Origin: Isoetes taiwanensis
Taxonomy: Eukaryota; Streptophyta; Lycopodiopsida; Isoetales; Isoetaceae
Assembly (NCBI GenBank): GCA_021234155.1
Contig: JAJEKV010000797.1
Coordinates: 1-64,000 of the forward strand
Direction of reading: 5' to 3'
Length of the DNA stretch: 64,000 nt
Positions 1 to 63,361 of this stretch are shown one piece after another. The translations under genes were made by a program, and so were the position numbers. Below the pieces are notes generated by a model. It searched no databases. It had not been told where the DNA came from and worked only from the letters and a program-made list of their open reading frames with translations. Numbering within the stretch: the stretch's first letter is position 1; each line of letters starts with the position of its first letter.

Positions 1-675
1 CCCCTTATAACCACATAAACTATATAATCTTAAGTATACTATTATGCAGGGCATTGATAGCACTCCATGAGGGCATGTATCATAAGCTTTAATGTCTTGT
101 TGATAAAGTATATGTTCATAATAACTGCATAGATAGCTTTGTCTTGTGTAGATATCTTAGTATCGAGACAAAGTAAGATAATAATTACATAAAATCTTAG
201 TTAAACATTCGCAAGGATGTAATTCTTCCAAAGGCAATTAAGTAACTTTCATAGGGTCTTGACAAATATAATAAGAATTTGTCTATCTTTCCATAAGTAT
301 AGCAACTATAAAGTATATACATATGCGGTTGATACATCAACAACCAAGTAGCGAGCGAGAGTCACACGCTCAACACTTGGATCCGATGATATAAACCCTA
401 GCCATATGATAAATAATTAAAATACTTTTCAAAATAAGTATTGCCTTGATAATTGTATGATGACATATCTTAAAGGTCGTAAAGTTATCATATAACAGTT
501 AGTTAAATATAATACTATTGGAAGCAATATATCCAATGCTACTATAATGTAAATATAAAAATATTACCGTAAGGTAATTAATATAATTGCATGCATTAAG
601 GGAAGTCCAGCAGGGATCATGCAGGGGTCCAAGACTGTAATGCTTATTTAAGACGTTAACGGATGTTAGCCGACA
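1..675. other. AT-rich interval, no gene recognised
   Basis: I see no convincing coding region. The only structure noted is the palindrome TTACCGTAAGGTAA at 564-577. Close variants recur at 1783-1796 and 3686-3699, inside the 3' regions of the two LTR elements, so at least part of this stretch may belong to the older Ty3 element whose integrase end follows. Confidence 0.4.
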
Positions 676-1222
676 TGCAACAGTTGGTGAAGGAAGTACG
701 AAGATATCTTCTAGCAGCAAGAGGCCGGCAGAAGTGCATAGATGAAGCTCTGCATCGGCGATTACAGCATCGGCGATTAGGCTGAAGCTCTGCATCGACA
801 ATTACAAGAAGCTTGCTCCAAGGTGGGCTGGACCATTCAGGATAATCAAAAGAGTAGGTAACCAATCCTATAAGTTGGACCTGCCAGCACAATTAAAGAT
901 CAATAGTGTTTTCCAAGTAAGTCTCCTAAAGAAACACACTCCTAATCCAGAGGAAGTATTGGAGACACCAAAGTTACTGGAAATGATAGACGATCACCTT
1001 GAGATTGTTCCAGAGGTTGTTCTTGTCAGATCCTATAAGAAGACAAGAAGATCTCAATTCTCCAATACCTAGTGAAAGGGACACTTACCAGTGGAAGACG
1101 CTACGTGGGCACTACAAATAGATCTTGAGAAGCAGTACCCACAACTCATGGATCAATGCAAGGGTCGACTCGTCACCAAAGTAGTCAACACCGAACCGAT
1201 AGGTGAGTGGAAGGTAGATTAA
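676..1222 (+). pseudogene. Ty3-type integrase C-terminus with chromodomain-like tail, broken
   Basis: The reading frame after 800 encodes KLAPRWAGPFRIIKRVG followed by YKLDLPAQLKINSVFQVSLL, the signature of the integrase C-terminal region of plant Ty3/gypsy elements. It continues to QYLVK and, after a one-base frame change near 1080, LPVEDATW, which resembles the C-terminal part of a chromodomain; the frame ends at a TAA at 1220-1222. The segment between MQQLVKEVRRYLLAARGRQK (from 676) and KLAPRW is shortened and contains a stop. Integration and chromatin targeting are inferred family roles. Catalytic integrase and RT sequences lie outside the window or are lost, so this copy is non-functional. 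Confidence 0.85.
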
Positions 1223-1894: not shown

Positions 1895-1899
1895 GTGGG
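1895..1899. repeat. Target site duplication GTGGG, left copy
   Basis: GTGGG directly precedes the left LTR at 1900 and directly follows the right LTR at 11189-11193. A perfect 5-bp duplication is the expected footprint of Ty3/Copia-type integrase and fixes both element boundaries. Confidence 0.92.
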
Positions 1900-3562
1900 T
1901 GTGACGTCCCCTACTCGCATACGGTGCACTCACCGTATACAAACAGGAGTTCATCCCCCATACCAGCTCCATGCCGATACAGGGCCCTCCACATAACACT
2001 GCAACCGTGACTGGTTCCAGTGGGAAGAGTGAAGGGGTCATTTTACCCCGTCTCCCTCAGGGCCTACCTAGCTGCGGAAGCGTAAACATACATGTCAGTA
2101 TATAACATAAGCACATAACCACCTCGAAGGGTGGCCCCATCACATCTGCATAAACAAGGTGAGCACAATACATATGGGGAGTTCTACCCAAGGCTCAGAC
2201 TCAAGGGGATGACTGACGGCTTGGGTCTCCAGAGTTCATTGCAGACAGAATTCATGGCAATGGATTTGGCTGGCATATGAACATGGCATAGGGTTGTCCA
2301 CTCCATCCGCCCCTCCTGTGCACACTTTGCAGAGTAGGCTGAAAAGTGTCGGGACGACCGTAGCCAGCCCGGATGCATAGCCGTAAGGGCTATTCACGGG
2401 TCTCATCCTCCCATTCGATGGGGGGGAAGGGATCACTCCCTCCGGAGATCTACATGTTGACTCAAGGTGACTAGAGGGCCTTGCCGTGATTCGACTGAAC
2501 CCACTGGAAAGTGTACACCACTTCACGGGTGTCGAGTCCATGCCTCACCCGCACTCAGTGGTGAGCCATTAGACCTAGTCACAATGATCCCTGGTAGGCC
2601 TTACACACCAGAGGGATCGTTCAAGAGTCAGGACATGAACCTCCTTCTTAGCCAGTCTGGCCCCTTCACCCACAACCCGGTGTGGTTCTTGTACACAGGC
2701 TGAATCTACAGTGTGCTAGAGAGGCTACTCTAGGAGCATCAACTACAAAGCTTTAGGTCTCTACCCCCCTTCCCAATACAAGGAGTTCATAGAGAAACAT
2801 CATCCATATACTTCCCAGAGAACTAAAGAACTAGATCTAATCTACATCATAGAGTTAGGTTCTTTAGTTAGAATCTGCTATCTAGAGATCTAGAGGGCTG
2901 CTATGGGCAATTTAAGAGGCTAAACCTACTGATTCTATGACTGAAATAGGGTTTAGACTATCTAATTGGCCAAATACCTGATCCTTGAGTGGTTCCTCCT
3001 GACCTGAGCTCGACCATCCTGCTGAAACGCTCGAATTAAGGGAAACTAATGGTGCAATTCTTTCAGGCAGAGTCTGGAAGGCGGTTTTGGCTGTTGAGGC
3101 AGCCAAAACAGAGTTCTAAAACCCTAGAAACGAAAATTGGGCAAGTTAGGGATTCTCTCCCTTAATAGACCAGGGGTTGGCTAGGGTTTCCAATTATCCC
3201 CTTTAGGCATGTGGGATAATTGGGAATGGGCCCACTTGCCTTTAATGGCTAGGTGGCAAAATGTGCCCACATGGAAATGTGTGCCCACATTAATGTGTAC
3301 ATTGGAGAATGTGCACATTAATTGCACCTATGGGTGTGGCCCACTTGGCATGAAGTGGCCATATGGGAAAATGTGCACCTAAGTGAATGTGCACATTGTT
3401 TAATGTGCACATTAATAAATGCACACTCCTTGCACGTTGCCCCTAGGGCTACTAGCCCTAGCTACACGCGTTGCGCGTTACGTCGGTCGGGGTGGCGTGT
3501 ACGGCGTGACGAGGCAAAGATAAAGATACGCCCCGGGACCGTATATCGCCCCGAACGTCACA
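1900..3562 (-). repeat. 3' LTR of the nested element
   Basis: Starts TGTGACGTCCCC and ends GAACGTCACA; pairs with 9551-11188. From about 2710 to 3430 the two LTRs are nearly identical apart from short microduplications of TGTGCCCACATT. The first ~800 bp and the last ~120 bp differ by many one- to three-base indels. Confidence 0.92.
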
Positions 3563-3575
3563 TTCTCCCCACCTT
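3563..3575 (-). promoter_or_regulatory. Polypurine tract of the nested element
   Basis: On the - strand this reads AAGGTGGGGAGAA, directly next to the LTR edge. The same 13 bases form the polypurine tract of the older element (1892-1899 plus 11194-11198). It primes plus-strand DNA synthesis and sets the transcript direction as - strand. Confidence 0.85.
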
Positions 3576-3914: not shown

Positions 3915-5117
3915 CTATTGGCCCTGAATGTAGTCGCGGGCTTCCTCGCCGTCGTCGTCAGACAGAGTGTCCCAATCTCCCAACTCCGCTAGCGCTGCAC
4001 TCATGACGTAGGGGCAGTTCGCTGTCCTATGGCCTGGCTGGAAGCACCTGAAGCAAAACTGCTTTTCTATGCACTCCTGTCTCTTTTCCTTGGGCATCGC
4101 CTGCAAAAAGGATCGCACTGCTTTGGAGTAGTTTGACCCCTCCTGCTTGTCCTTAAAGGACACCTGCTTCTTCTCCTTTGTTTCCCACAGTTTGCCACCA
4201 TATGGGGCTCTAGCTGGACCGGATGGCTTGCTCTGGGGCTATAGCTTTCTGTCGCCTTGCCTTTGTCCGGAAATGCTTGCTTTGCCTCTGCCCGCTATTC
4301 CGAGGGTCCCGTCCCCTTGCAAGCTTATAGCCTTGGACTCTGCTTCGATCTGTCTTAGGGTTTATTGCCCTCACAAACTGCGGATCTCCTCATTCAGCCC
4401 CTCAATATAGCTTTCTCTTGCATGCTTCTCACCCAATTTTGGCACATCTGACCTCAGCCTCATGAATTCCCTCGTATATACTTCTGGACAGATTTGTTGC
4501 CTTCTCGCAACCTGTAGAAGCCGTGCATCATACTAGACTTATGTTCCCTCGGGGCCGTAATGGCGCTTTTTGAAGGCTTTAGCAAACTTTACGAACTTAC
4601 AAGCATCCCTGCTTAAGCCATGTGCCTTTGCATAACCCTTCCACCAAATCCGTGCGGCTCCTTTCAAGTTGGTTGTTGCCACTCTTCCTTTGTCTTTATC
4701 CTTCATGCCATAAGCATTGCCGTACTCACTCATTTCGTCCAGCCATGCTTCTGCTTCTAAACCTGACCTGTTCTCCCCCGAGAACTGTTCCAGTTTCCGG
4801 GCCTTCCATACATTGCCCAACGCGGAATCTACCTTCTTCTGGTAGTCAGAGGCCCTGGTGTCCCTTTGTCGTCCGTCTGGGGTGTTCCTCTGCCTTGCGT
4901 CTGTCGGGTCCTGGGCCTGATCTTCTTCTTCCTGAGTCTGAGTCGACTCGAGCTTGAGCTTGAGGAGTCCGATTTGGGGGGATCTTCTTCTCTTGCTCCT
5001 CTTCTTGTCCCTTCCTGTTTTTCGAGCTGATGCTTGTGGTAATTGAGCATTGCCCACTGAACCCGGCTCCCGCCAGCGTGCAATGTGAGCCTTTATCCGC
5101 TCAAGGTCCGTCCTCAT
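3915..5117 (-). pseudogene. gag: Gag polyprotein, frameshifted
   Basis: The N-terminal part (192 codons from 5117) is charged and then enters a retrotransposon gag domain: WKARKLEQFSGEN, EAEAWLDEMSEY and AARIWWKGYAKAH. A frameshift or stop lies near 4539. The following segment still encodes gag-like sequence (ICPEVYTREFMRL) with further stops. The final 82-codon frame carries a CCHC zinc knuckle, CFRCFQPGHRTANC, and ends at 3915 with an acidic tail and DYIQGQ. Gag forms the virus-like particle and the knuckle binds element RNA. The stop coincides with the start of the 3' UTR shared with the older element, so pol appears to have been removed by an internal deletion. Confidence 0.85.
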
Positions 5118-5422
5118 CCGGGATATCTCCTCCTCTCGGGGTCATGGGTTCCATATCTTCAAATAGGTTCCTTAGGGGGTGGTGCAGGCGGGGTATGTTC
5201 TTCCCTAAGGTCTTGGCGTTGTCGTTCCCCTCGAGCCTAGGCCTCTAACTGCATACACAAGTAATTCATGGCTATATGGTTAGTTTTCCTTGTTCTCTTG
5301 CATTGTTTATGTTTGTTGGTATAGTTGTGGGCAAAATACATCAACAAAACATTTAAAGTGCAATGTAGATTATATTCATATATTATAATATTTTAGTACA
5401 AAAGTCTCCAGGGATCAAGAGT

Positions 5423-6937
5423 CTAACTAGTCTTGAAATCGCCGGTAAGACGGGTTGTCCTCAAGGAACTTCTTAACTTGGGCGTTCCTACCGAATGACC
5501 CAAGTTCCCGAAGACGCTGTCGACGAGCCGCCCAAGAAGGCTCTCGCGAAGTCTTCCACTCTGTGATCGGATGTGAGAGCACGCGGCCCCCGCTAATCTC
5601 GCTGGCGTCGATGAGGTATGGCGAAGTCGAAGAGGTCGAGTGCCATTGCCCTCTTGACTAGGACAGCATAGTGGACATTTGCCGCTATTCGAGCATGCAC
5701 AGCCGAGCACGAGAGTGCAATCGGCATGAACACTCCTTCCTCGCCCACGGGGCTGAATTTGCGGTGTACTACGCTATTCTCCCATCTAGCGGCGGTGGCG
5801 GGTAGTACTGGCGACTTTGTCATTGTGCGTCGCGGATGATTCCCCACTTGATTGGCCTCGGCTACGTGGCGTCCGGTGCATTTCGTCGACCTCTATCTCC
5901 GTCGGCTCGGTAATCTTCAATTGTGGAGTCGACTCTCGAGGTCAATTCTGCTCCTCTTGTTGGAGGTGGTGTTGAAGGACTCGGCATCGGGATGCTAGTG
6001 GTCTTGCCTCTGATCCCCACCCGTTCTGGATGGCGAGGAACTCTTCTTGGGATGGCGGTCCCCCGGTCTCCATGACACGCCTTATCTGTTGTATGCTTGG
6101 ATGTGGGAGGTCGCTTCCCACGTGTAGGTGTCGGCTTCTCTCGACTTGAAGGGAAGTCTGAGACTCCCGGACGATGAAGTCGTCCATGTCGGTCTGCCGC
6201 AGTTGATTGGTGCAAGTTCGTCAATCGAGCTCCCTCTCCCTGCATTCGGGGAGGTTCTGGATGTCGCTGGGGAGTAGATACTCTTCTCCGTTGATGATGA
6301 TGGGGGCTAGGCTTGTGATGCCTAGCCCGAGTGGGGGAGCAACTCTGATGTTCTGCCGGCTCTGCTCGAAGTTGATCAGCTCCTGCTCAGCTTGGCGCCG
6401 TTCTTCGTCTGAGTCGAGCTCCGTGTACTCCTCGTCGTCCGACTCCTCTTCTTCTTCTCTTGCTTCTTGTTCCTGTTGATACTGCAAAAGCATCTGCTCT
6501 TCTGCTTGGGCTGCTATGGGGTCCACCTCCATCGGAGGGATAGAGGTTGCCCCCAATGGGTTTTCGGCGCGATGGGTTAAGAACATAGCTAGGGCGGCGG
6601 TGTAAGAGAAATACTTGGTTCTGTTGGCTGTCAGGACCATGTAGTCTGGCAGCCTTTGTGCCTTGTTAGTTAGGTACTTGGCGATGTTGGGGACATCGCC
6701 CAAGGCTGCTTGAAGGGATGGCCGGGGAACGAAATATCCTATGCAAGGGGGAACCTGAACAAGGGAGGGTCCTACCCTAGCTTGAAACTCTGCTAGCACT
6801 TGCCTATATGCTGGGGTTGCATTTAGCGTGGCTTGGATATCAATTTCTTTCCCAAAGACTTGGAAGATGTCGTCGACATCCGCCTCGGCAGCATGGGCAC
6901 TGGCGCTGTACCATCGCCTGAAGTCAGCAGTGGCCAT
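5423..6937 (-). pseudogene. Unknown retroelement ORF with acidic tract, frameshifted
   Basis: The first 238 codons (6937-6221, MATADFRRWYSASAH start) are open. I do not recognise the family. Residues 1-135 look globular. Residues 144-190 form a charged helix-prone segment containing EEEEESDDEEY and LDSDEERRQAE, and the frame then becomes hydrophobic (PPLGLGITSLAPIIING). Coding character continues in shifted frames (6187-5942, 5847-5593, 5710-5423), so the original protein was probably about 450-500 residues, now broken by small indels. It sits between the H3-like ORF and gag on the same strand. The acidic tract would suit a histone-binding or chaperone-like partner, but that is only an inference from composition and position. 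Confidence 0.6.
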
Positions 6938-7239
6938 TGATCTAGCGAAGAAGGGAGTAACAGACGGATGCAGAAGCGCCTCAGGGAGCTGGAAGATCGT
7001 CTAAGCAGTGGAGAGCAGACTTGCAGGGTGCTAAATGAGAAATGGGGGACTTATTTATAGAAAAGGGGAAAACCCTAATTTTTGGATGACCTAGAATTTA
7101 CTGAGATTAGGTGATTCTGATCTGTTAAATGGTGCAATTGCGAGTTTAAAGACTACTTCTAGGGTTTGAGCATGCTAAGGACAACTAATGAACCTATTGT
7201 AACAACTTGGAGATCATTTGGTGAAGAAAATGGTGCGAG

Positions 7240-7306
7240 GTCTCACACGTTGCGCCCAGACCGATTTTGAGAATCTCATTTTCTGTCCTGGCGCGACGTG
7301 TGAGAC
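7240..7306. repeat. 67-bp hairpin, copy 1
   Basis: The left arm GTCTCACACGTTGCGCCCAG pairs with the right arm CTGGCGCGACGTGTGAGAC. The loop holds a second inverted pair, GAGAATCTC plus flanks. It lies between the H3-like ORF and the acidic ORF, 199 bp from copy 2. Confidence 0.9.
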
Positions 7307-7438: not shown

Positions 7439-7505
7439 GTCTCACACGTTGCGCCCAGCCCGAAAATGAGAATCTCATTATCTGTCCTGGCGCGACGTGT
7501 GAGAC
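7439..7505. repeat. 67-bp hairpin, copy 2
   Basis: Same arms and the same nested loop (GAAAATGAG / CTCATTATC) as copy 1. It lies about 150 bp downstream (in transcript order) of the stop codon of the H3-like ORF. Confidence 0.9.
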
Positions 7506-7651: not shown

Positions 7652-8089
7652 TCAAGGGCGTTCTCCCTTGATGTGCCTGGCAAGATACATATCCTGCCTC
7701 ATGAGGGTGACCCTCTTCGCGTGCACTGTGCAAGCCGTTGAATCTTCAAAGTGCTGCACTATCTTTGCCTCTGCTGCCTCCTGTAGGCACAGCAACATTT
7801 CATCTGTCACGCGCATGTCTGTGTTGTACTCCTGCATGACTTCGCGAACCAATCGTTGGAATGGTGCCCGGGGAATCAGGAGTCCGTAACTCTTCTGGAA
7901 ATGCCGAATCTCCTTAAGGGCTCTGTCCTCCAACTTCTTCCTGTTGGTCCGTTTCTTCCCTGGTGCTCTTGGAGGCTTGGGCCTGGGTGGCGGCGGCTTC
8001 AAGGTCTGGCTTCTTGTCGGGTGTCCGCCTTCGATCGCTCTAACCATGTGCTCCTGATAATAAGCGTTATACGCCTCCCATTTCTCCAT
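7652..8089 (-). CDS. Histone H3-fold protein segment inside an LTR retrotransposon
   Basis: This 145-codon open segment ends in a complete, ungapped H3 histone-fold. Visible landmarks are [11 protein letters not shown] (alpha-N helix), [15 protein letters not shown] (alpha 1), LQEAAEA (alpha 2), [15 protein letters not shown] (loop 2) and [10 protein letters not shown] at the C-terminus. More than half the positions match canonical H3 when aligned by eye. Loop 1 (QEYNTDMRV) has the canonical H3 length, without the insertion usual in CENH3, yet [10 protein letters not shown] and VTLMRQD resemble plant CENH3. There is no canonical ARTKQTARKS tail; instead a proline/lysine-rich linker (residues 29-52) precedes the fold. 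The segment is the C-terminus of a longer, upstream-frameshifted ORF. Chromatin incorporation or particle packaging is conjecture; the fold assignment is strong. Confidence 0.88.
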
Positions 8090-8897
8090 GTAAGCGTTGT
8101 GCTCTCTGATCCTCTTCTGATAGACCTTGATCCGGGTCTATCACGCCGCCTCCCTTTGTGGTGGCGGGGCTTTAACCCTATCCCACGTCGGGAAAAAGGT
8201 GGGGGCTTGGGGGGCCTTGGACTGGTCTTGTTCCTCGCTGCCACTTGCGGGGGACTTCCCTTCTCCGCGGTAGGGGGTTTTGAAGACTTCGCCCCCTACG
8301 TGTTGGGGGCGTAATCCTCGTCCGAATGTCGTCGGTAGAGGCGGGGTCTCTTCGCACGATGGTTCGTTGATGGCGGGCCCTACCGCTTCGCTTCCGAGCC
8401 TTCACAACCTTTCTCTTGCACGCTTTAATGGCTTTGGCCTTCCTCTTCTTTGGCTCGTTGGCGTGTGGTTGGGTGGATGTCTTCCGGTTCTTCGTTCTTT
8501 GCTCCGGCTCTCGGCTTCATACTGGCGATGGCGCACAAGATCTGCTTCTTGGCGGGGGCTAAGAGTCGTGATCCATTTGCTCTTCTCTCCTTGTTCTTCA
8601 CCGTAAGTGGGTTTCGGGCTGAGCTGCTCTTCAACTATTGGCTGCCCGTCGGCTCCGTTGCTCCTGGTCCTCTCCTCCTCCTCGCGATCTCTTCTAGGAT
8701 TTGATGCATGATGTGCGGCGGTCGTCGTCTATGATCTCGGTGTAGGGGCTCAGGTCGATCACTGCATCTTATTTCGAAGAAGATTCGCCTTCGGAAAAAG
8801 CGTTCTTGGAGGACTCTCCGAAAGAAGGCGAGCATTGTATTTGGATGATTAAACCCGGTGAGGCTTCCTTCTGCGATTTTTTGTCGCGGGCCATCAT
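8090..8897 (-). pseudogene. Broken N-terminal part of the H3-fold ORF
   Basis: A tandem ATG start at 8897 opens MMARDKKSQKEASPG and runs about 40 codons to a stop near 8770. Coding-like sequence then continues in shifting frames: a segment with DAVIDLSPYTEII, a lysine/arginine-rich stretch (KRARERL, KARKRSGRARHQR in alternate frames), then KAPPPQREA just before the open 7652-8089 frame. With the indels ignored, the product would be about 400 residues: a long, basic, low-complexity tail fused to a C-terminal histone fold. The stops argue that this copy is dead or that the sequence carries small errors. Confidence 0.6.
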
Positions 8898-9075
8898 TTC
8901 TTTGGTTCGTCGATCGGGCTAAGCGCCGGGAAGAAAGCCTCGGCGAACACGAGCAAACTTCTAAGGGAAGCGAAAATGGGAGGGTCTAGGTCTATTTATA
9001 GGGGTCAATTTTAGGTCAACTTTTAAACTACCTTTTTGGGGTGCTTAAAACATCTAAAACACCTAATTAAGCAAG

Positions 9076-9142
9076 GTCTCACACGTTGCGCCCAGCCCGA
9101 AAATGAAAAAGTCATTTCCTGTCCTGGCGCGACGTGTGAGAC
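9076..9142. repeat. 67-bp hairpin, copy 3
   Basis: Same arms as copies 1 and 2 (GTCTCACACGTTGCGCCCAG with CTGGCGCGACGTGTGAGAC). It lies in the leader between primer site and H3-like ORF, 202 bp from copy 4. Confidence 0.9.
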
Positions 9143-9277: not shown

Positions 9278-9345
9278 GTCTCACACGTTAGCTTCCAACC
9301 CGAAAATGAAAATCTCATTTTCTGTCCTGGCGCGACGTGTGAGAC
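9278..9345. repeat. 68-bp hairpin, copy 4
   Basis: The right arm is intact (CTGGCGCGACGTGTGAGAC). The left arm has diverged after GTCTCACACGTT. The inner loop pair GAAAATGA / TCATTTTC is kept. It lies about 200 bp from the 5' LTR edge. Confidence 0.85.
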
Positions 9346-9534: not shown

Positions 9535-9550
9535 ATTGCTCGATACCCTT
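9535..9550 (-). promoter_or_regulatory. Primer binding site, degenerate initiator-Met tRNA type
   Basis: Read on the - strand just inside the 5' LTR, the sequence is AAGGGTATCGAGC. This resembles TGGTATCAGAGC, the usual plant LTR-element primer site, with a base missing. The same site occurs intact in the Copia element at 41740. Confidence 0.5.
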
Positions 9551-11188
9551 TGTGGCGTCCCCTACTCGCATCACGGTTGCACTCACAGGTATACAAACAG
9601 GAGTTCATCCCCATACCGGCTCCATGCCGTCGTCTGGGGGCCCTCCACATAACACTTTGCAACTAGTGGATCGGGTTCCGGTGGGAAGAGTGAAGGGTCA
9701 TTTTACCCGTCTCCCTCGGGGCCTACCTAGGCTGCGAGGCGTAAACATACATGTCGGTTATATAACATAAGCACATAACCACCTCGAGGGTGGCCCCATC
9801 ATCTGCATAAACAAGGTGAGCACAATACATATGGGGAGTTCTACCCAAGGCTCGGACTCAAGGGGATGGTGGCGGCTTGGGTCTCGAGTTCATTGCGGGA
9901 GCCGAATTCATGGCAATGGATTTGGCTGGCATATGAACATGGCATGGGTTGTCCACTCCATCCGCCCCCTCGTGCACACTTTGCGAGTAGGCTGAAAAGT
10001 GTCGGGACTGGCCGTAGCCGCACGGATGCATAGCGGAAGGGCTTATTCACGGGTTTCATCCTCCCGGTTCGATGGGGCAGGAAGGATCACTCCCTCAGGA
10101 GATCTACATCGACTCAAGGTGACTAGAGGGCCTTTGCCTGTATTCGGCCCGAACCCTTTGGAAAGTGTACACCACTTCACGGGTGCAATGAGTCCATGCC
10201 TCACCCGCTTTCGAGTGGTGAGCCATTAGACCTAGTCACAATGATCCCGGTAGGCCTTACACACCGGAGAGGGATCGTTCAAGAGTCGGGGACATGAACC
10301 TCCTTCTTAGCCGGTCTGGCCCCTTCACCCACAACCGGTGTGGTTCTTGTACCTGAGCCGAATCTACAAGTGTGCTAGAGAGGCTACTCTAGGAGCATCA
10401 ACTACAAAGCTTTAGGTCTCTACCCCCCTTCCCAATACAAGGAGTTCATAGAGATACATCATCCATATACTTCCCAGAGAACTAAAGAATTAGATCTAAT
10501 CTACATCATAGAGTTAGGTTCTTTAGTTAGAATCTGCTATCTAGAGATCTAGAGGGCTGCTATGGGCAATTTAAGAGGCTAAACCTACTGATTCTATGAC
10601 TGAAATAGGGTTTAGACTATCTAATTGGCCAAATACCTGATCCTTGAGTGGCTCCTCCTGACCTGAGCTCGACCATCCTGCTGAAACGCTCGAATTAAGG
10701 GAAACTAATGGTGCAATTCTTTCAGGCAGAGTCTGGAAGGCAGTTTTGGCTGTTGATGCAGCCAAAACAGAGTTCTAAAACCCTAGAAACGAAAATTGGG
10801 CAAGTTAGGGTTTCTCTCCCTTAATAGACAAGGGGTTGGCTAGGGTTTCCAATTATCCCCTTTAGGCATGTGGGATAATTGGGAATGGGCCCACTTGCCT
10901 TTAATGGCTAGGTGGTAAAATGTGCCCACATTAATGTGTACATTGGAGAATGTGCACATTAATTGCACCTATGGGTGTGGCCCACTTGGCATGAAGTGGC
11001 CATATGGGAAAATGTGCACCTAAGTGAATGTGCACATTGTTTAATGTGATGCACACTCCTTGCACGTTGCCCCCTAGGGCTACTAGCCTAGCTACACGTT
11101 GGCGTACACGTCAGTCGGGGTGGCGTGTACGCGTGACGAGGCAGTACAGTATACGTCCTGGGACCGTATACTGTCCTGGAACGTCACA
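9551..11188 (-). repeat. 5' LTR of the nested element
   Basis: Begins TGTGGCGTCCCC and ends GGAACGTCACA on the + strand; pairs with 1900-3562. In transcript orientation its U3 edge carries a palindrome-like pair AGTATACGG / GACGTATACT, matched in position by ATAATATACG / ACGTATATTAT in the older element's LTR at 11199. Confidence 0.92.
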
Positions 11189-11193
11189 GTGGG
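11189..11193. repeat. Target site duplication GTGGG, right copy
   Basis: Partner of 1895-1899. It is followed by GAGAA, which completes the polypurine tract interrupted at 1899. Confidence 0.92.
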
Positions 11194-11198
11194 GAGAA

Positions 11199-12783
11199 TG
11201 TGACGTTCCAACATAATATACGATCCGAATACGTATATTATACTACCACATCACACGTACATGTCATGATGACATGTACTTGAGAACCGTAAAGGGTTGC
11301 ACCTAGGAGGCAACCTCGTATGTTGTGCATGTTTATTAAACATATACAATTATAAACCCCATGCCAAATGGCAAAACGCCATTTGGCCAATGTTAACCTA
11401 ACCCTAAAAGTCTCTATATAAGGGCTTTCCCATTAAACCCTAAACCCTTTTCTTCTTTCACATTTAGGGTTTTCCTTGAGCTCCTTCCCTTCTCTCGCAT
11501 TTAGGGTTCTCTTGAGCCATTCCGGCCAAGCTAAGACCCTAATTCGCATTGTCAGGCTCTGAAAAGCCGCCTTTGCACAACAGATCTTCGAGTAGCAGCA
11601 GTCTTCAGCAGGATCAGAGGCATGGACGCATTCCGAGGATCTGGAGCGGGTCAACTACCAAGTAAATAGTCATTCTGTTGTGCAAAGCCGCCTTGTGGCT
11701 AGGCAATAAGCTGGTTTAGCATGTTAGTTCAGCCTTAGAGGCCTTACAGATCCCGAGATCATAAGCCCTAACAAAGGAACCTAACTCTGGATGTTTAGAT
11801 AGATAGATTAGATGATATTCTTCATTTCAGTTCTGTGATGATGTTGGTATTTCATTATGTGACCTCCATGTATTGGGCATTGGGAAGGGGGGTAGAGGCC
11901 TAAAGCCTGTGTAGCAGATGATCCTAGATAGCCTACTAGTTCCCAATTACATGCGGTCCGTGCACAGGAGCCCGCCTGGTTGTGGGTGGCGGGGCTAGAC
12001 CGGTTGACAAGGGGGAACTTGTCCCATCACGGACTGACCCCTCTGGTGTGTAAAGCCTACCGGGGGTCTAAGCGGGCTAAGCTTAATGGCTTGCCACTGA
12101 GTGTGGGCAAGGCATGAGCTCGACACCTCTTGGGTGATGCGTAACCTTCAATGAGGTTCAAGTCAGATACGGGCAGTGGCCCTCTAGCCGCTTGTGATGG
12201 GCATGGATGCCTCTGGAGGGGAGGTGACTCTCCTCCTGCCTCATCGGGACTGGGGAGATGCAACCCAGCAGTAGCCCCTTTGGCTATGCACCCGGCAGGC
12301 TACGGTCAGGTCCCAATACTTTTCAACCTACTTTGCAAAGTGTGCACGGGAGGGGCGGATGGAGTGGACTACCCTCAGCCATGTTCTTATGCCAGCCAAA
12401 TCCATTTGACATGAATTCTGTCTGCAATGACTTCTGGAGGCCCAAGTCGTCAGTCAAAACCCCTTGAGTCTGAGCCCTGGGTAGGATTCCCCTTTGTTGT
12501 TATTGTTCATATTGATGTTGTTGTATATGTGATGATTATGATGTGTTCACCCTTCGAGGTGATTGTATTGATGTATTGTTATTATGTGCTCATGTTTATT
12601 CACGCTTCCACAGCTAGGTCGACCCGAAGGGAGACAGGTGAATGACACATCCACTCTTCCCTTGCTGGCTCATTCCACTGGGAGTGGTGTCAGGTGGATG
12701 GCCCCTGCTAGTTTGGCTGACAGGGGGAATGCTCCGCCTTCTGATACGATGTGTGCATCGTAGAGGAAGTAGAGGACGTCACA
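11199..12783 (+). repeat. 3' LTR of the older Ty3 element
   Basis: Starts TGTGACGTTCC and ends GAGGACGTCACA, the same termini as the nested element's LTRs but in the opposite orientation. The middle (about 11880-12490) is recognisably the reverse complement of parts of 2160-2790, including GTGTGTAAAGCCTACCGGGG and CACTTTGCAAAGTGTGC-type segments. It directly follows the reconstituted polypurine tract, which identifies it as the 3' LTR. The 5' LTR is outside the window. Confidence 0.88.
11415..11422 (+). promoter_or_regulatory. TATA box of the LTR promoter
   Basis: TATATAAG lies about 215 bp into the LTR, followed by GGCTTTCCC and a CCCTAAACCC run. Position and sequence fit the RNA polymerase II promoter in U3. 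Confidence 0.6.
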
Positions 12784-15490: not shown

Positions 15491-16430
15491 GGCTCAGGAT
15501 ACTTTTACCCTTGATTCGGTGATCCCGGAGATAAATTTACCGGCCTCCGGGATCTCCGGTCTCTCTCGGCGACGGTCCGGGGGACCCCCGATTAAGGTCT
15601 GGCAGGCGCCACGTCGGCCCAGACCATCCCGCTGTCCAAACCCACGTGCAATCGCGGCCATCGGCGCCTCGAGAGATCCCGCCTCGGGGATCATCCACGC
15701 GATCCCCCTCCCGGGATCCCCCGGCGGCCCATTTGCTTGGCCCGGGCGATATCGCCGAGGTGATCCCCTCCTCAGGGATCCCAGGCACCCGGGGACGCGG
15801 ATCCCCTCCTCTGGGATCACCCGGTAGGTGGACCCCCACCTGGGATTCGGGCACCCGTTAGCGGATCCCCTCCTCCGGGATCACCGTGGCCGTGTAACGG
15901 CGGACCATATCCGCCGAGGTGATCCCCTCCCCTCGGGATCACAGGGGCCGTGGCGCGATCCCCTCCTCGGACGCTATTCCCCGAGGTGATCCCCTCCTCA
16001 GGGATCCCGGGCACCCAGGACGGATCCCCTCCTCCGGGATCACCCGGTGGCGATAGCCCGGGGATCCGCTATCGCCGTGGTGATCCCCTCCTCCGGGATG
16101 CCCCCCTCCCCCTCCCGTGGTATCGATACTTGGCCGGGCGCTTATCCGCCGAGGTGATCCCTCCTCCGGGGATCCCCGATATGGTGGCGTGGATCCCGTG
16201 ACTTGGATCCTGTGCTCGGGCCGTGGCTGCATTTGGCCGGGCGCTTATCCGCCGTGGTGATCCCCTCCTCACAGGGATCCCCGGCACCCGGACCAGGGAT
16301 CCCCTCCTCGGGATCACCCCACCGGCTGACTCTGGCGGGCCGCTTAATCGCCCTATGTGATCCCCTCCTCCGGGATCCCCGGGCACCCGGATGGGGATCC
16401 CCTCCTCCGGGATCACCCCCAGGCTATTCC
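15491..16430 (+). repeat. MULE left terminal inverted repeat
   Basis: The outer 150 bp is unique sequence; the rest is an array of about 16 palindromes of the form GATCCC-CTCCTC-(C)GGGATC spaced 25-60 bp apart, with variable linkers such as GGCACCCGGACGCG and TATCGCCGAGG. It probably serves both as the transposase binding region and the transposase gene promoter region. Confidence 0.9.
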
Positions 16431-19438: not shown

Positions 19439-20162
19439 GAATGGCATCGTGAGTTTGTTGTTGTTTAATGCTCATTGACACCTCATGAGCTTCATTGTCT
19501 TGTTAATTGTTCAGGTCAAGTTTAGAGTTTTGTAAAATGAGGTATAAATAAATCAATATTCACCTATGTACTTATAAATATTGTCAATGTTATCAATGTT
19601 TATTGTTAGGAGTTAAATGTTAGGATAATTTAGAACCTTGAGTTAAATGTTTAATGTTTAGAGTTTAGACCATAGGATAAAAAGAGTAATAAAAACGTAC
19701 GTGGGATCCCCTCCTCCGGGATCCCGCGTCCGCCTGTAATGTGATCCCGTCCTCCGGGATCACACACTAACGAAAACGGGATCCCCTCCTCCGGGATCCC
19801 GCGTGCGCCATCCTGGTGATCCCGTTCTCCGGGATCCCGCGTCCGCCTGCCTGGTGATCCCGTCCTCCGGGATCACATACTGGTTATAACGGGATCCCCT
19901 CCTCCGGGATCACACACTGGTTATAACAGGATCCCCTCCTCCGGGATCCCGCGTCGCTGGGCTCGGGTGATCCCGTCCTCCGGGATCACAGGATTGAATA
20001 TGTTAATATATTGTTTATCATATCCCTTAACCATTGAAATATGTCTTGGAATAACCATTGAAATATGTCTTGGAATAGTGGAAACATTGAAGTATTACTT
20101 TTAATAAGCTTTGAAACATTGAACTTAATACAATGGCTTAAAACTGACATTCCAATTCGGAA
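19439..20162. other. Intergenic spacer after the MULE transposase
   Basis: AT-rich DNA with GTTTAGAGTTTAGACCATAGG and the palindrome array 19703-19990. It lies between the convergent 3' ends of the transposase and the small gene. Most of it (about 19640-20090) is duplicated in direct orientation at about 20930-21460. Confidence 0.6.
19703..19990 (+). repeat. Internal GATCCC palindrome array 1
   Basis: Nine units of the GATCCCCTCCTCCGGGATC type, the same unit as in the terminal repeats, with different linkers (CGCGTCCGCCTG, ACACTAAC). It lies in the spacer after the transposase. Confidence 0.9.
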
Positions 20163-37471: not shown

Positions 37472-38180
37472 ATGGAAATGCTTGCAAATATGAGGGAAAT
37501 TTGGGTATGGGGCTGTGGTAGTGACACTGTGTTACTACGCGATTTGGAAGCGAGGAAGAGGAGGGGCAGGGGCACCACCAAGGCCGTAATCGCTTCCAAT
37601 AATCGGGCATCTCCATCTGCTCTACTTCTCTAGTGTACCGCAGAGGGTTTTAGGGCGTCTGTCACTTCAATTTGGTCCGCTCTTCTCCCTTCGCCTTGGT
37701 TCTGTGAAGCATGTTGTGGTGTCGTCCCCCGCCATGGCCAAGGCGTTTCTCAAAACCCACGATGCCTCCTTTTTTTCTTTCGTCCCAAGTTTGAGGCCGG
37801 CCGCATCCTTAGCTACAATTGGTCCGGAGAGCTCGGCGTGTCCGAGCTATGGCCCCGTTCCAAACACATCCGCAAAATCTTTGTTGACCACCTTTTCTCC
37901 CCTAAACGATCCGCCAAACCCAAAGATATCAGATCTGAAGAAACTCGCTGCACTCTCCGGTCTATCCTTGAAGATAGCCTTGCACACAACCCCGTAAATC
38001 TCACCTCTAAATTATCTAACCTCACCACAAACATCATCACCAGGATCGCATTCGGTAAGAAATTCTTTGGAAAGGGTTGTGCATTAGGTGCAGATAAATT
38101 CGAGGAGATGATTCGTGAGGGGTTTCTCTTGTCACGAGTGTTTAATTTGGGAGACTATTTGCCCTTTTGTCACGATTTGA
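37472..38180 (+). pseudogene. Cytochrome P450 exon-1 pseudogene
   Basis: Paralogue of exon 1 of the gene at 51583-53226: shared coding text includes MREIWVW, SSPAMAK(A/R)FLKTHDAS, SKHIRKIFVDHLFSPKR and LSNLTTNIITRIAFGKKFF. It is broken by frameshifts near 37510, 37580, 37780 and 38170, and lacks the proline hinge reading frame and all of exon 2 (no I-helix, no heme Cys). It lies downstream of a Helitron-like end and is followed by an inverted copy of its last ~175 bp. No P450 activity is possible; any role would be through RNA. Confidence 0.9.
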
Positions 38181-38405
38181 TCTGCAGGGTTATCGGTGCA
38201 TTTATTGGCTGTGCATTTATTGGCTCCCCATAAATCATGACAAAAAGGGCAAATAGTCTCCCAAATTAAACACTCATGACAAGAGAAACCCCTCACTTAA
38301 TCATCTCCGAATTTATATGTGCGCCTAATGCACAACCCTTTCCAAAGAATTTCTACCTAATCATTCTCGTGATGATGTTTGTGGTGAGGTTAGATAATTT
38401 AGAGG
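38004..38405. repeat. Long inverted repeat made from P450 coding sequence
   Basis: Arm 1 is 38004-38180 and arm 2, in reverse complement, is 38231-38405, separated by about 50 bp. The arms differ at few positions. A copy of GCATTTATTGGCTCCCCA sits in the loop (about 38213-38230) and another just past arm 2 (38410-38427). A transcript through it would fold into a ~175-bp double-stranded stem. Confidence 0.9.
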
Positions 38406-42391: not shown

Positions 42392-42705
42392 GGGAGAAAT
42401 CTGTCCGTATGGAAGAACATCCCAATCGCTTTGTATGTGGGAAAGAGGTCGGGACCCAGGTAGAAGCCGAGGAAGAGGAAGAGCACAAATCCAAAGGTTA
42501 CGCTTGTGAGGATGTCCAAATCGAGAAAGGTGGAGTCGTGGTACAGGAGCATTTCCACGAGGGGAAGGGTCGAAAGCATCATCTATGGCAACTGTAAGTG
42601 AACTTGATGATAGCAGTGAGAAATTAGCAAAAGTGGGAGTGCTTAGTGAAGATAAGGTAAAGAAACTGAACTTTAAAGATGTAGTGTCAAATATTACTCT
42701 TAGAA

Positions 42706-44260
42706 ATGGCTTGGATAAAACTGACACTGACTTTAGATTCGGGAGCTGAAGTCTCCATAGTCAACTTACCTGGTTTGTTGAATAAGGTTGAGCTAAGTAA
42801 AGGTAATCCGAGGGTGCAAATGGGAAATGGCGCAACACAAAAGGTGCGTGGAAAGGGGGAGTTGCAGGTATCAAGAGAAGGCAAGGAAGTTTTAAGATTG
42901 CCAGATACTCTATTTGCTCCAAAAATGTTGTTTAACTTAGTCTCGGTTGCAAATCTTGTTGATAATGGATATGATTTACTTTTTCATAAGCATGGATGCA
43001 AATTTATTAAAGATGGTGTGAAAATATTTGATGCTGATAGAAGAGGAAATTTGTTTGAGTTTGACATCAAAGCAATCAATAAAATATCTTCCATAGATAA
43101 ACTGCATACTTGGCATTTGAGGTTGACGCACACAAATCATAATAATATTAGACTTGCAGAAAAGCACAATTTCTTGGATGACTTGATGTGTGAGCATGAA
43201 AATCATGATGATATTTGTGAGGCATGCATGTTAGGAAAGCAAAGTAGATTGCCTTTTAGAAATAAAGGCAAGAGAGCACACAAATTGCTTGAGTTAGTTC
43301 ATTCAGATGTTTGTGGTCCAATGCAAGTTCAAAGTCTAGGGTCGAAATTCTACTTTGCATCATTTATTGATGACTATAGCAGAAGGACTAAGTGTTACTT
43401 TTTGAGGTCCAAAGACCAAGTATTTGATGCCTTTAGGCTTTATGTTGCGGAAGTTGAAAGGGAGACATCATTAAAGGTTAAATGCTTGAGGTCTGATCTT
43501 GGAGGAGAATACATATCAGGTGAATTTTGCAAATTTTGCCAGGAGCATGGAATTAGAAGACAGTATACATGTCGGTATACGCCGCAGCAAAATGGTGTAG
43601 CAGGACGAAAGAATCGCACCATCATGAATGCAGCAAGGTCCATGCTTAAGCATCCGGGCCTATCTAACAGCTTATGGGCGTAAAGCAGGCTTGTCACATT
43701 CGAAAAAGGTTGCCCAAGTGTTGCAAGAAAGGAGGCGATGCAAACAGGTTTGACTGACAAAGACAATCCGCGAAGCTTTAAAGTGTATGGATGTTTAGCC
43801 TATATGTTGGTCCCCGAAGAACTCAGGAGGAAGTTGGATGATAGAAGCATATGTACTTTTCTGGTTGGCTACGATGAAGAAACGAATGGTTACAGGTTAT
43901 ATGATCCAAACACTCGCAGAATATATGTTAGCAGAGATGTGATATTTAACGAAAACATCATATACAAAGGTAGGAAACTGCTTAGCAAGCCAGAGATGAC
44001 AGAATGGGTACCCGTAGAATATTTGGAAAATGATTCAGGGGTAAGTAAAGAAGCAATGCACAATTTTAAGGAGACAATAGGTTTACCCATGGAAGATGAA
44101 ATTGACATTGAAGATGATGAAATTGAGGGCATAAGTGAGCAAGAAGGTACAGAACCAGATGTGGTGCATGAGGTCGCAGAAACTGATAGTGCGCTGCATA
44201 CTGGGTCAAAGGAGGTGCATGAAGTCTTAGAGCCAGAGGAGGTGCATGAAGTCTTAGAGA
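42706..44260 (+). pseudogene. pol: Copia protease and integrase, truncated before RT
   Basis: Protease motif LTLDSGAEVSIV (DSG in place of DTG) starts the frame. Next is the zinc-binding GAG-pre-integrase region (WHLRLTHTNHNN, then CEACMLGKQ). Integrase catalytic residues are in HSDVCGPM, FIDDYSRR and LGGEYISGEF (D, D, E), followed by YTPQQNGVAGRKNRTI. A stop at 43681-43683 interrupts the frame. The C-terminal integrase region continues from 43738 (YGCLAYMLVPEELR, FLVGYDEETNGYRLY) into an acidic tail with VHEVLE repeats. RT and RNase H are absent. Confidence 0.9.
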
Positions 44261-51582: not shown

Positions 51583-53226
51583 TTAACTTAAGGCAAGATT
51601 CAAACGAGGTGTGGCAAAGGCAAGCAAAGGTTTTTCTCTTGGCATGGTGAAACCAAATGTCTCGGTGAAGTCGATTTTACCAATAACTTCCCAGTCGAAG
51701 GTGTGAAGTAGACGTGCTAGAATTATATGCACGATAGGAAGTGCCAGGGGCATGCCAGGACACATCCTTCTTCCAGAGCCAAATGGAATAAGCTCAAAGT
51801 GATTGCCCTTGGGATCTATGTTGTTGTTGATAAACCTGTCAGGATCAAATACATGGGGATCTTTCCAAACCTTAGGGTCTCTTCCAATTTGCCAAGCATT
51901 CACGAGCAAGTGTGTGCCCTTTGGGATATGGTAACCTCCTACATCACAATCCTGAGTCGACGTATGAGTAAACAGCAAAGGCGCTGCAGGATGGAGCCTA
52001 AAGGTTTCTTTCACAACTGCCTGTAAAAAGGGTAGGTTAGGAATGTCATCTTCGTCAACCAACCGCTCAGATCCGACCACGTCATCCACTTCCTGCTTGA
52101 TACGTTGGATGAGCGAAGGGGCTTGCAAGAGTTCTGCCATTGCCCATCCCACCGTGGTAGAGTTTGTGTCGGTCGCAGCAAACATTATGTCCTATGCCAT
52201 TCAACACTTTAGAAAATACTATGATTATGAATAATCTAATTTTACAATTCAATAAAATACCTCAATTATATTCAAACGTGTTCTAATAAATTAGGCCAGC
52301 TATATTCAAACCTGAGTATGTGATTTTACTGCTTCCAGATCTAGCTTTGATCCTTCTTCCTCGCTTTCCGCTTGCAGCAAAACCCTCACCAGATTATCCC
52401 ATCCATCCCTTCTGCCTTCTGCAAGATTTTTCACCTCTTCATCAACAATCCTTTGAAAAAAAGCATCCAAATTCTGGTGTAAATCCTCCATTCTTCGCCT
52501 GTAACCCTGCAGATCAAATCGTGACAAAAAGGGCAAATAGTCTCCCAAGTTAAACACTCCCGACAAGATAAACGCCTCACGAATCATCTCCTCGAACTTA
52601 TCGGCCCCTAATGCACTCCCCTTTCCAAAGAATTTCTTACCGAATGCGATTCTGGTGATGATGTTGGTGGTGAGGTTAGATAATTTAGAGGTGAGATTTA
52701 CGGGGCTGTGAGCAAGGCTATCGTGAAGGATAGACTGGAGAGTGCAAGAGGTTTCTTCAGATCTGATATGCTGGGTTTGGCGGATGCGTTTGGGGGAGAA
52801 AAGGTGGTCGACAAAGATTTTGCGGATGTGTTTGGAGCGGGGGCCATAGTCGGAGACGCCGAGCTCGGACCAGTTGTAGCTAAGGATGCGGCCGGCCTCA
52901 AACTTGGGACGGGCAGAAAAGGAGGCATCGTGGGTTTTGAGAAACTCCCTGGCCATGGCGGGGGACGAGGCCACAACATGATTCACAAAACCAAGGCGGA
53001 GCGAGAAGAGCGGACCAAATTGAGCTGACAGACGCCCTAAAACCCTGTGCGGTACACTCGAGAAGTAGAGCAGATGGAGATGCCCAATTATTGGAAGCGA
53101 TTTCGGCCCTGGCGGTGCCCCTCCCCCTCCTCTTCTTCGCTTCCAAATCGCGTAATAACACAGTGTCACTACCCCAACCCATACCCAAATTTCCCTCATA
53201 CTTGCAATTGCAAGCATTCTCATCAC
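51583..53226 (-). CDS. Cytochrome P450, A-type (CYP71 clan), intact two-exon gene
   Basis: Exon 1 is 53226-52312 (305 codons), exon 2 is 52191-51583 (202 codons plus stop); the 120-bp intron is phase 0 with GT/AG ends, the usual A-type position. The 507-residue length is normal. Residues 12-29 form the N-terminal ER anchor, then basic KRRR and the hinge PPGPKSLP (38-45). Exon 2 carries the I-helix AATDTNSTT (about 310-318), KETFR (ExxR, about 366-370), FDPDRF and the heme loop FGSGRRMCPG with ligand Cys about 449. It would be an ER monooxygenase of specialised metabolism; the substrate is not predictable. The text around the heme loop resembles CYP76/CYP71 families. I chose the first of several clustered ATGs. 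A broken exon-1 copy is at 37472. Confidence 0.93.
52192..52311 (-). other. P450 intron
   Basis: Donor CAG|GTTTGA, acceptor GGCATAG|GAC, phase 0. A short AT-rich intron. Confidence 0.9.
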
Positions 53227-62060: not shown

Positions 62061-63361
62061 CTACGTATCGAAGTCGATTTTCCAGTGGCAGATATCTCTT
62101 GAAGTTTGCATAGACATTTTTGTGCAATGTCGTTGACCGGCAGAGTTCAACTGTTCAAACCCACACAAGTGGCATGCCGCATATCCAGACACTTGGAGTC
62201 CAGAGAGTTCATACAAACCAGGCCAATCGCTCGTTGTCCACATTAAGATTGCTCTCAAGGTAAATCTTCGTTCAGCACGAAGTTCTCTTGAGACATCGTA
62301 AACTTCAATATCTTCACTCCACAATGTCAGAAGCTCATCAATAACTATTTTCAGATACGGATCTAGACTTTCCGGCTTCTTCAGTCCTGGAACTAATAGT
62401 ACTACCATTAAATGGCTAGTCTTCATGAGTAACCACGGTGGTAAATTATAGTTGATCAACACTACTGGCCAAGTTGACCACGTGGCCGATTGACGTCCAT
62501 AAGGATTAACAACATCCATTGCCAACCCTAATCTGAGATTTCGTGGCTCCCTTCCAAATTCCGGCCATGTTTCATCAATATGCTTCCATTGCTTGCAGTC
62601 ACTAACCATGCGAAGTACATTGTCACTCGACACATTAGCAGCACACCAACCCATGAGCGAAGCTAGAGATTCACATCGAAACAATAGCCTTATGCGAGGG
62701 ATCAATGGAAAGTAGCGAACCACCTTCATCGGGACGGTCTTACCCTTGGCATCCGCGCTTCTTGTAGATGTCATTCGGATAATAAACCATGCAATCATTT
62801 GGACAAGCGTGAATCTTATGGTAGCCTAAACCAGTAGCTGCCAATATAGTTTTTATTTCATCACGACTTTTGGGCATAGTGTTCCCTTGTGGGAGTATTT
62901 TCTCTTGCAATAAGCTGCATAAAATAGCCCTTTACGTATACATTCAACTACAAATTCAATAAGTCAAGTGATTGCAATTGTACTTACTCTAACAAAGCCG
63001 TAACACTGGCATTGCTCCATTTGAACTTGGTTTGAAGGTTTAATATCAATAAAGATGTTGCCAATCTAGATATGCTTGCACCTGGATATGATACTTTATG
63101 CGCCTCCTCCAATAAAACGTGATCTTCACGACCATCGCTAGGAGTATTTATATCGTCATCTAGGTCATTGTCGAAGATTGGGCCAAATGCATCTAACATG
63201 TCGGCTATGGGTTCCTCAACTTCCATGAGGTCGTCCACAGTGGCATTGTCGTCATCTTCATCGTCATATTCCTGTTCATCTTCATCATTGTACTTTTCAT
63301 TATGCGTTGTGCCCATGTTTGTACCATATTGCTCAATGTATTCTAATTCTGCTATCCGCAA
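62061..63361 (-). pseudogene. CACTA-type transposase (tnp2 family)
   Basis: The N-terminal frame (63361-62984) has an acidic tract and then LDAFGPIFDND, NTPSDGREDHVLLEEA and LQTKFKWSNASVTALLE. A probable intron (GTAAGTACA to ATGCAG) leads to SRDEIKTILAATGLGYHKIH with ACPNDCMVYY. After a small frame change the main frame (62798-62061) has RNLRLGLAMDVVNPYG, WSTWPVVLINYNLPPWLLMK, LVPGLKKPESLDPYL and MWTTSDWPGLYELSG, then CHLCGFEQ. This is the order found in tnp2 transposases of En/Spm elements. The C-terminal half is absent and terminal CACTA motifs were not found, so the element is incomplete here. Confidence 0.88.

What the first reader, a model, noticed from the sequence alone, without database searches (positions are those of the whole stretch)
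7652..8897. Histone H3 fold encoded inside an LTR retrotransposon
Seen: an open - strand frame lies between two intact LTRs with a perfect 5-bp target duplication. Its last ~90 residues align without gaps to the H3 histone fold ([44 protein letters not shown]). The canonical tail is replaced by a long basic, proline-rich region. It mixes an H3-length loop 1 with CENH3-like text ([17 protein letters not shown]). Known: plant LTR elements sometimes carry extra ORFs, and centromeric chromoviruses target CENH3 chromatin; I do not know of an H3-carrying one. Inference: the protein could mark element DNA, target integration to centromeres, or compact DNA or RNA in the particle.
Basis: partly seen in the sequence, partly recalled or inferred. 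Interest (0 to 1): 0.92.

Follow-up and report, generated by a model that had tools for sequence, protein, structure and literature searches.

The report
Jumping gene carrying its own histone
A common plant jumping gene of the retrovirus-like kind carries its own histone H3 gene, whose protein begins with the same nine residues as real histone H3 and has been kept intact by selection across copies, so a genomic parasite appears to make its own chromatin protein.

Summary
Confirmed, and larger than claimed. The window copy (LTRs 1900-3562, 9551-11188; 5-bp duplication) is a damaged member of a high-copy Ty3/gypsy-type family in a 1.66-Gb genome: a protein search scored 150 copies of the H3 frame (the cap; 11,118 candidates). 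Of 50 copies read, ORF2 lies downstream in 48 and LTR sequence upstream in 42. Sister copies carry gag, protease and reverse transcriptase. In 25 of 50 the gene starts MARTKQTARK, the canonical H3 tail with K4 and K9, in 15 DNA spellings; about 326 residues of other sequence and a complete H3 fold (57% identical to H3.3) follow. The fold is constrained: dN/dS-type ratio 0.02 in the 30 best matches, 0.19 in 20 lower-ranked ones, 0.11 where gag gives 0.13 and ORF2 0.14. In the window copy both cargo genes have TATA promoters under shared dyad boxes. A CENH3 origin is not supported: the tail is canonical, a second diverged H3 is less CENH3-like, trees do not decide. A further class of near-canonical H3s (135 matches at 85-90%) exists. 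Most likely the element makes its own H3 to act on host chromatin; the mechanism is inference. Copies were sampled by protein score; species and expression are unknown.

The parts
9551..11188 (-). 5' LTR
   Evidence: blastn of the window with itself, 91.2% to the other LTR
1900..3562 (-). 3' LTR
   Evidence: preceded on the - strand by the polypurine tract
1895..1899 (.). target-site duplication GTGGG, left copy
11189..11193 (.). target-site duplication GTGGG, right copy
9537..9548 (-). putative primer binding site, resembles the tRNA-Met complement with one base missing (consensus recalled)
   Evidence: sequence printed
3563..3575 (-). polypurine tract next to the 3' LTR
   Evidence: sequence printed
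7652..8137 (-). open frame of 161 codons: end of the insert plus the H3 histone fold
   Evidence: 150 genome copies
7655..7921 (-). H3 histone-fold part, 89 residues, equivalent to H3 residues 47-135 without gaps
8138..8897 (-). rest of the H3 gene from the ATG at 8897, broken by stops and frame changes in this copy; in sister copies this part encodes MARTKQTARK and a long insert
8993..9001 (-). TATA box CTATAAATA of the H3 gene
   Evidence: TATAAATA also 108-111 bp before the ATG in 15 of 16 sister copies examined
9076..9142 (-). dyad box 2 of the H3 promoter
9278..9345 (-). dyad box 1 of the H3 promoter
7240..7306 (-). dyad box 2 of the ORF2 promoter
7439..7505 (-). dyad box 1 of the ORF2 promoter
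7052..7060 (-). TATA box CTATAAATA of ORF2
6221..6937 (-). ORF2 as open in this copy (238 codons; open frames of up to about 530 codons in sister copies), no recognised domain, acidic stretch
3915..5141 (-). gag frame with CCHC knuckle near its end; five in-frame stops in this copy, pol not found here
   Evidence: sister copies have gag above cutoff
11199..12783 (+). LTR of the neighbouring + strand element into whose polypurine tract this element inserted; about 71% identical to ours over 11705-12783
602..1216 (+). 3' end of that neighbour's pol: integrase C-terminal SH3-like domain
   Evidence: PF24626 E=5.6e-18

Best explanation
A high-copy Ty3/gypsy-type LTR retrotransposon family of a (probably plant) genome carries two cargo genes between its primer site and gag. 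In the window copy each has its own TATA promoter under a shared pair of dyad boxes. The first encodes a histone H3 made of the canonical first nine tail residues ARTKQTARK, a proline in place of S10, an insert of about 326 residues and a complete, diverged H3 fold; the second (ORF2) is unknown with an acidic stretch. Shown: the anatomy in many copies, H3 homology, the canonical tail, purifying selection on the fold, ORF2 and gag, and sister copies with protease and reverse transcriptase. Inferred: the protein pairs with host H4, enters chromatin as a replacement H3 whose tail can be read and written at K4 and K9 but lacks the other canonical tail sites, and so weakens or redirects silencing of the element. 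The window copy itself has no detected pol and looks dead.
For: 150 scored copies at 85-100% identity, 15 of 150 with a stop in the matched part by my count of the table; 51 of 150 open frames of 400 aa or more (count). ORF2 downstream in 29 of 30 and 19 of 20 copies, LTR sequence upstream in 24 of 30 and 18 of 20 (my counts). MARTKQTARK exact in 25 of 50 copies, 15 DNA spellings, P at residue 10 in 25 of 25. Fold pooled pN/pS-type ratio 0.021 (30 copies, 0 of 435 pairs above 1), 0.189 (20 lower-ranked, 1 of 190), 0.104 (all 50, 10 of 1225); other-frame controls 1.96, 1.72 and 1.43. In the same copies: ORF2 0.144 (6 copies), gag 0.126 (5), H3 fold 0.11. Gag, protease and RT domains in sister copies. 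TATAAATA 108-111 bp before the ATG in 15 of 16 copies.
Against: Copies were found by protein similarity, which favours conserved proteins and lowers dN; the lower-ranked set gives a weaker ratio. A sample chosen by non-coding DNA could not be drawn. Half of the 50 copies lack the exact tail, and only 12 of 50 are open from MARTKQTARK to the stop. No expression or protein data. The AlphaFold model without an alignment was poor (pLDDT 57) and Foldseek on it found no histone. Integrase of the family itself was not seen.
Confidence: 0.6

Rival explanations
1. Histone mimic rather than histone: the ARTKQTARK end serves as free bait for host H3K4/H3K9 enzymes and readers, and the fold mainly anchors or dimerises the protein.
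For: The first nine residues are kept exactly in 25 of 50 copies and set off by a long insert.
Against: The fold is under constraint as strong as gag, and positions R69, R72, R83, C110, H113, K115, R116, T118, D123 and L126 are kept (their nucleosome roles are recalled).
Confidence: 0.2
2. The H3 protein guides integration: its tail, methylated at K9, or the protein in chromatin, is recognised by the integrase end of this family and draws new copies to such sites.
For: A relative's integrase end has chromodomain-like text; plant chromoviral chromodomains are assumed to direct targeting (passages of PMC6317226).
Against: Pfam recognised no chromodomain in that broken piece; the family's own integrase was not seen.
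Confidence: 0.12
3. CENH3-derived protein for centromere access.
For: CENH3 states at 9 of 25 diagnostic columns against recalled plant CENH3; 89/88 in the first tree.
Against: Canonical ARTKQTARK start; H3 states at 8 of the 25; H3-length loop 1; the second diverged H3 has RKAPF and PKD like H3; with it, support is 74/81 and H3 grouping is not rejected; copies are spread along contigs.
Confidence: 0.08
4. Useless captured cargo hitch-hiking in a busy element.
For: The window copy and many others are broken; capture of host sequence by LTR elements is common (passages of PMC13317346).
Against: Purifying selection across copies at high synonymous divergence (mean dS 0.45) and long frames in 51 of 150.
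Confidence: 0.04

Closest known systems
Plant Ty3/gypsy elements with extra ORFs (eORFs)
   Same: Extra sense-strand ORF upstream of gag; the survey PMC6317226 found eORFs of 250 codons or more in 3372 Ty3/gypsy elements, 21.4% of eORF proteins with a known domain type (passages).
   Different: Its main text has 'histone' once, for H3K9 binding by chromodomains (passages); its domain list (Additional file 4) was not seen. Here the ORF is a histone with its own promoter, paired with a second gene.
Bs1 and other gene-capturing LTR elements (passages of PMC13317346)
   Same: host-type gene inside an LTR element
   Different: that review's main text has 0 occurrences of 'histone'; here a complete gene kept under selection in many copies
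Singlet viral H3 (xenomavirus, DSLPV1, Sylvanvirus) and bracovirus H4 (passages of PMC9145170)
   Same: a parasite genome coding one histone, some with an extended N-terminal part
   Different: DNA viruses, 73-87% identical to H3 in the fold; here 57%, in a retroelement, with an insert between canonical tail and fold; that review's main text has 0 occurrences of 'retrotransposon'
Plant CENH3 (recalled Arabidopsis, rice, maize)
   Same: LIPxAPF as in the grasses, HFQK and VTLMR as in Arabidopsis
   Different: canonical tail, no loop-1 insertion, V at position 84
Gag-only plant LTR elements (TR-GAG; recalled, paper not held)
   Same: the window copy has gag and no detected pol
   Different: sister copies have protease and RT, so the window copy is better read as a deletion copy

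Membership tests
LTR retrotransposon | paired LTRs and target-site duplication | tested here: met
LTR retrotransposon | primer binding site and polypurine tract | tested here: inconclusive
   PPT clear; PBS only resembles the recalled tRNA-Met complement with a base missing
Ty3/gypsy | gag, protease, RT and RNase H in the family | tested here: met
   one sister frame with Retrotrans_gag 1.3e-16, Ty3_capsid 1.5e-14 and RVP_2 5.6e-09; another with RVT_1 2e-40 and RNase H 9.4e-33 (three such frames scanned)
Ty3/gypsy | integrase after RNase H | not tested
   not in the stretches fetched; a related + strand element in the window has an integrase C-terminus (PF24626)
Ty3/gypsy | own pol in the window copy | tested here: not met
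   26 of 27 stop-to-stop frames of 80 aa or more between the LTRs scanned, no pol domain
Chromovirus | chromodomain | tested here: inconclusive
   chromodomain-like text in the relative, not recognised by Pfam
Histone H3 | complete fold, Pfam Histone above cutoff | tested here: met
   100.3 bits against 26.4, 89 columns without gaps
Histone H3 | canonical N-terminal tail | tested here: met
   residues 1-9 only, exact in 25 of 50 copies; not in the window copy; the canonical residues after 9 are not kept
Histone H3 | assembly with H4 into nucleosomes | not testable with these tools
   needs protein work
CENH3 | longer loop 1 with aromatic residue | tested here: not met
   H3-length loop, V at position 84 (references recalled)
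CENH3 | clade with plant CENH3 | tested here: inconclusive
   89/88 without, 74/81 with the second diverged H3; H3 grouping AU p=0.12 and 0.31

The most novel reading that the evidence does not exclude
In this genome several lineages of elements encode their own H3s (57%, 62% and 88% identical to H3.3 in the fold), and the family described here uses a true H3 tail on its own histone, together with a co-regulated acidic-stretch partner, to write its own chromatin state or blunt H3K9-based silencing: transposon-made chromatin. For the 62% and 88% classes, residence in mobile elements is likely but not shown.
Probability: 0.35. Interest if true: 0.98.

Novelty: new variant of a known kind. Interest (0 to 1): 0.92.

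Why it matters
Histones carried by DNA viruses are known; a histone carried and kept under selection by a high-copy retrotransposon, with the K4/K9 tail intact, would give transposons a direct hand on nucleosome make-up and on the marks by which plants silence them. It turns a general question (how do elements resist silencing) into tests on one protein, and one search of one genome already supplies at least 150 natural copies.

Tried and rejected
Processed pseudogene of a host H3: rejected (own promoter, 57% identity, selection across copies). Nested DNA transposon: no bounding inverted repeats found. Dyad boxes as independent insertions: disfavoured, the same pairs recur in both promoters and in most sister copies. 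One-arm matches in 3 viral contigs judged chance. Viral-contig scans with H3 ORF, ORF2 and gag: no relatives. ORF2: no Pfam domain above cutoff in the window copy, none in a full-length sister frame, only weak PDB matches (E 0.052 and 0.14; 0.25), poor fold (pLDDT 46). Foldseek on the poor H3 model: 28 weak matches, none described as a histone. Rfam and tRNA scans of the window: nothing. My first reading, a non-autonomous element with a CENH3-like cargo and one known copy, was overturned; the score was raised for that reason. Gag-only status is now read as a deletion in this copy.

Not answered: the genome search at (H3 frame, then answered at 90; H3.3, then answered at 125; asked again at 128, not answered; ORF2; promoter DNA). 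Paper searches failed at 20, 21, 25, 36, 39, 49, 60, 65 and answered at 68, 73, 74, 81; paper reading failed at 37, 38; not held at 76, 82.

Full report
What is there. The window lies on contig C549 of a genome of 1,658,258,908 bases in 1110 contigs. It looks like plant DNA: a cytochrome P450 whose best PDB matches are named ferruginol synthase, sugiol synthase and isoflavone synthase (plant enzymes as I recall), and copia-, gypsy- and CACTA-type remains (type names partly recalled). The species is unknown. On the - strand an LTR element runs from 11188 to 1900: LTRs 9551-11188 and 1900-3562, 91.2% identical over 1697 alignment columns. Both flanks carry GTGGG; taking the element out restores TCAAGGTGGGGAGAATGTGACGTTC, the polypurine tract and LTR start of another element on the + strand, the same letters as the element's own junction.

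The window copy. Its H3 frame is open for 161 codons. Residues 73-161 align without a gap to H3 47-135; Pfam Histone 100.3 bits; 51 of 89 identical to H3.3. Kept: R69, R72, R83, C110, H113, K115, R116, T118, D123, L126; changed: R49K, R63P, K79N, K122Q, R129H. Upstream, the H3 frame has stops and the ATG frame breaks off. Gag has five in-frame stops. No pol domain was found in 26 of 27 frames of 80 aa or more between the LTRs. This copy looks dead. LTR differences cluster and follow GC and CpG density (Spearman 0.70 and 0.64, longest identical run 161 against at most 143 in 5000 simulations), so some breaks may be base-calling error; I cannot tell.

The family. After sixteen unanswered tries, the genome search returned 150 matches, the number it scores out of 11,118 candidates, at 85-100% identity. 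I read 50 copies: the 30 best, which include the window (L004-L033, about 3.5 kb each), and ranks 129-148 of the list (L034-L053, 9.4 kb each). ORF2 lies downstream of H3 in 29 of 30 and 19 of 20; LTR sequence lies upstream in 24 of 30 and 18 of 20; gag is matched in 17 of the 20 longer stretches (my counts). Dyad boxes recur in both promoters in most copies. Of three downstream polyprotein frames scanned, two show gag above the curated cutoff (the third shows it below), two show RVP_2 protease above cutoff, and one shows RVT_1 (2e-40) and RNase H. So sister copies belong to a gypsy family with pol; the integrase was not in the stretches fetched.

The tail. In 25 of 50 copies the gene starts MARTKQTARK, identical to canonical H3 residues 1-9 (after the M), in 15 different DNA spellings, and residue 10 is P in all 25, where H3 has S (H3 tail recalled, and partly shown). 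Several others keep near forms; the window copy reads MARDKKSQKEA at that place. Twelve of 50 frames are open from MARTKQTARK through ALKEIRHFQ to the stop (411-437 aa). In the seven of these among L034-L053 the insert averages 326 residues, acidic in its first quarter and basic in its last. TATAAATA stands 108-111 bp before the ATG in 15 of the 16 copies where the ATG was matched.

Selection. Nei-Gojobori counts. For the 30 best copies, mean dN 0.023 and dS 0.448 over 159 codons; pooled ratio 0.07 (tail part 0.135, fold 0.021); 0 of 435 pairs above 1; the same DNA in the other two forward frames gives 1.96 and 1.72. These copies were ranked by protein similarity, which biases dN down. The 20 lower-ranked copies give 0.189 for the fold, 1 of 190 pairs above 1, frame control 1.43; all 50 give 0.104, 10 of 1225 above 1 (one copy with a shifted codon was left in, which raises the figure). 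In copies with ungapped ORF2 (6) or gag (5), ORF2 gives 0.144, gag 0.126 and the H3 fold 0.112 and 0.113: H3 is constrained like a core gene of the element. Before other copies were known, a single-copy test showed changes concentrated at family-variable sites (15 of 52 invariant against 22 of 34 variable columns, Fisher p=0.0017 with PDB-derived references; 7 of 34 against 30 of 52, p=0.0008 with recalled plant CENH3 added; columns with a gap dropped). Lack of stops alone was weak: 12.8% of 3000 neutral runs had none.

Promoters. In the window, H3 (ATG 8897) and ORF2 (ATG 6937) have CTATAAATA 103 and 122 bp upstream and two dyad boxes each of 67-68 bp; the regions share 276 bp at 70%. The 11-bp arm occurs exactly eight times in the window, all in these boxes, plus two one-mismatch matches elsewhere; shuffles expect 0.40 at up to one mismatch and 0 of 100 reached ten. 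The first 24 and last 12 bases of the box are the same in all four.

Not CENH3. Against recalled plant CENH3, 9 of 25 diagnostic columns carry a CENH3 state, 8 an H3 state, 8 neither (my tally). A first tree put the element H3 beside plant CENH3 at 89/88, H3 grouping AU p=0.12; without the grasses unresolved, without Arabidopsis 80/87 with this row flagged as a long branch. One of the fetched stretches (L047) holds a second, diverged H3 (Pfam Histone 4.4e-26; 55 of 89 identical to H3.3 and 46 of 89 to ours) with the same KPPPPRPxPP stretch before the fold. With it in the tree the two element H3s pair at 79/82, the join with plant CENH3 drops to 74/81, and H3 grouping costs 2.8 log-likelihood units, AU p=0.31. 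Together with the canonical tail I now favour origin from ordinary H3, with CENH3-like states by convergence.

More H3s. The H3.3 fold as query gave 150 scored matches of 8811 candidates: 15 at 98-99% (host-like genes by identity) and 135 at 85-90% with open frames up to 546 aa. One of the latter, read over 1501 bases, is a 485-residue frame ending in an H3 fold 78 of 89 identical to H3.3 behind a long unrelated region. Whether that class sits in mobile elements was not seen.

Mechanism. Most likely a replacement H3 that pairs with host H4 and changes the chromatin of the element or host; K4 and K9 are offered, S10 is removed, and the rest of the canonical tail is replaced. The site that PMC9145170 calls the chaperone recognition site (passages) reads EMLL, against HAVL in the H3.3 used, so deposition may differ from H3.1/H3.3. 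A histone-mimic bait and an integration guide are rivals. All of this is inference from sequence.

Literature. 'retrotransposon-encoded histone': 0 papers; retrotransposon + 'histone domain' + captured + Ty3: 0; two wider searches listed 16 and 7 papers, of which I saw the listings and passages of PMC13317346 and PMC9145170; PMC6317226 was looked up by DOI (passages). None of the passages describes a histone in an LTR element. This covers one open library only.

Noticed in passing
G000, 135 places listed; L054 1-1501: A further high-copy class of near-canonical H3s (85-90% to H3.3) with open frames up to 546 aa; the one read is a fusion behind a long unknown region.
   Followed up: partly
L047 8616-9401 -: A second, diverged H3 frame (62% to H3.3) beside another copy of the element, sharing the proline-rich stretch before the fold.
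   Followed up: partly
window 15500-16420 and 19705-19948: Many copies of a GATCCC-TCCTC-GGGATC palindrome-like unit in loose arrays.
   Followed up: no
window 62061-62825 -: tnp2-type transposase, PF02992 E=8.7e-52.
   Followed up: no
window 42685-43683 +: copia-type integrase region.
   Followed up: no
window 37634-38233 + and 52306-53226 -: A partial second copy of a cytochrome P450 gene about 14 kb from a fuller one, on the other strand.
   Followed up: no
window 1900-3562 against 9551-11188: LTR differences concentrate in GC/CpG-rich parts: methylation-linked mutation or base-calling error.
   Followed up: partly
window 602-1216 +: The neighbouring gypsy element shows chromodomain-like text after its integrase end, broken by two stops; not recognised by Pfam.
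   Followed up: partly
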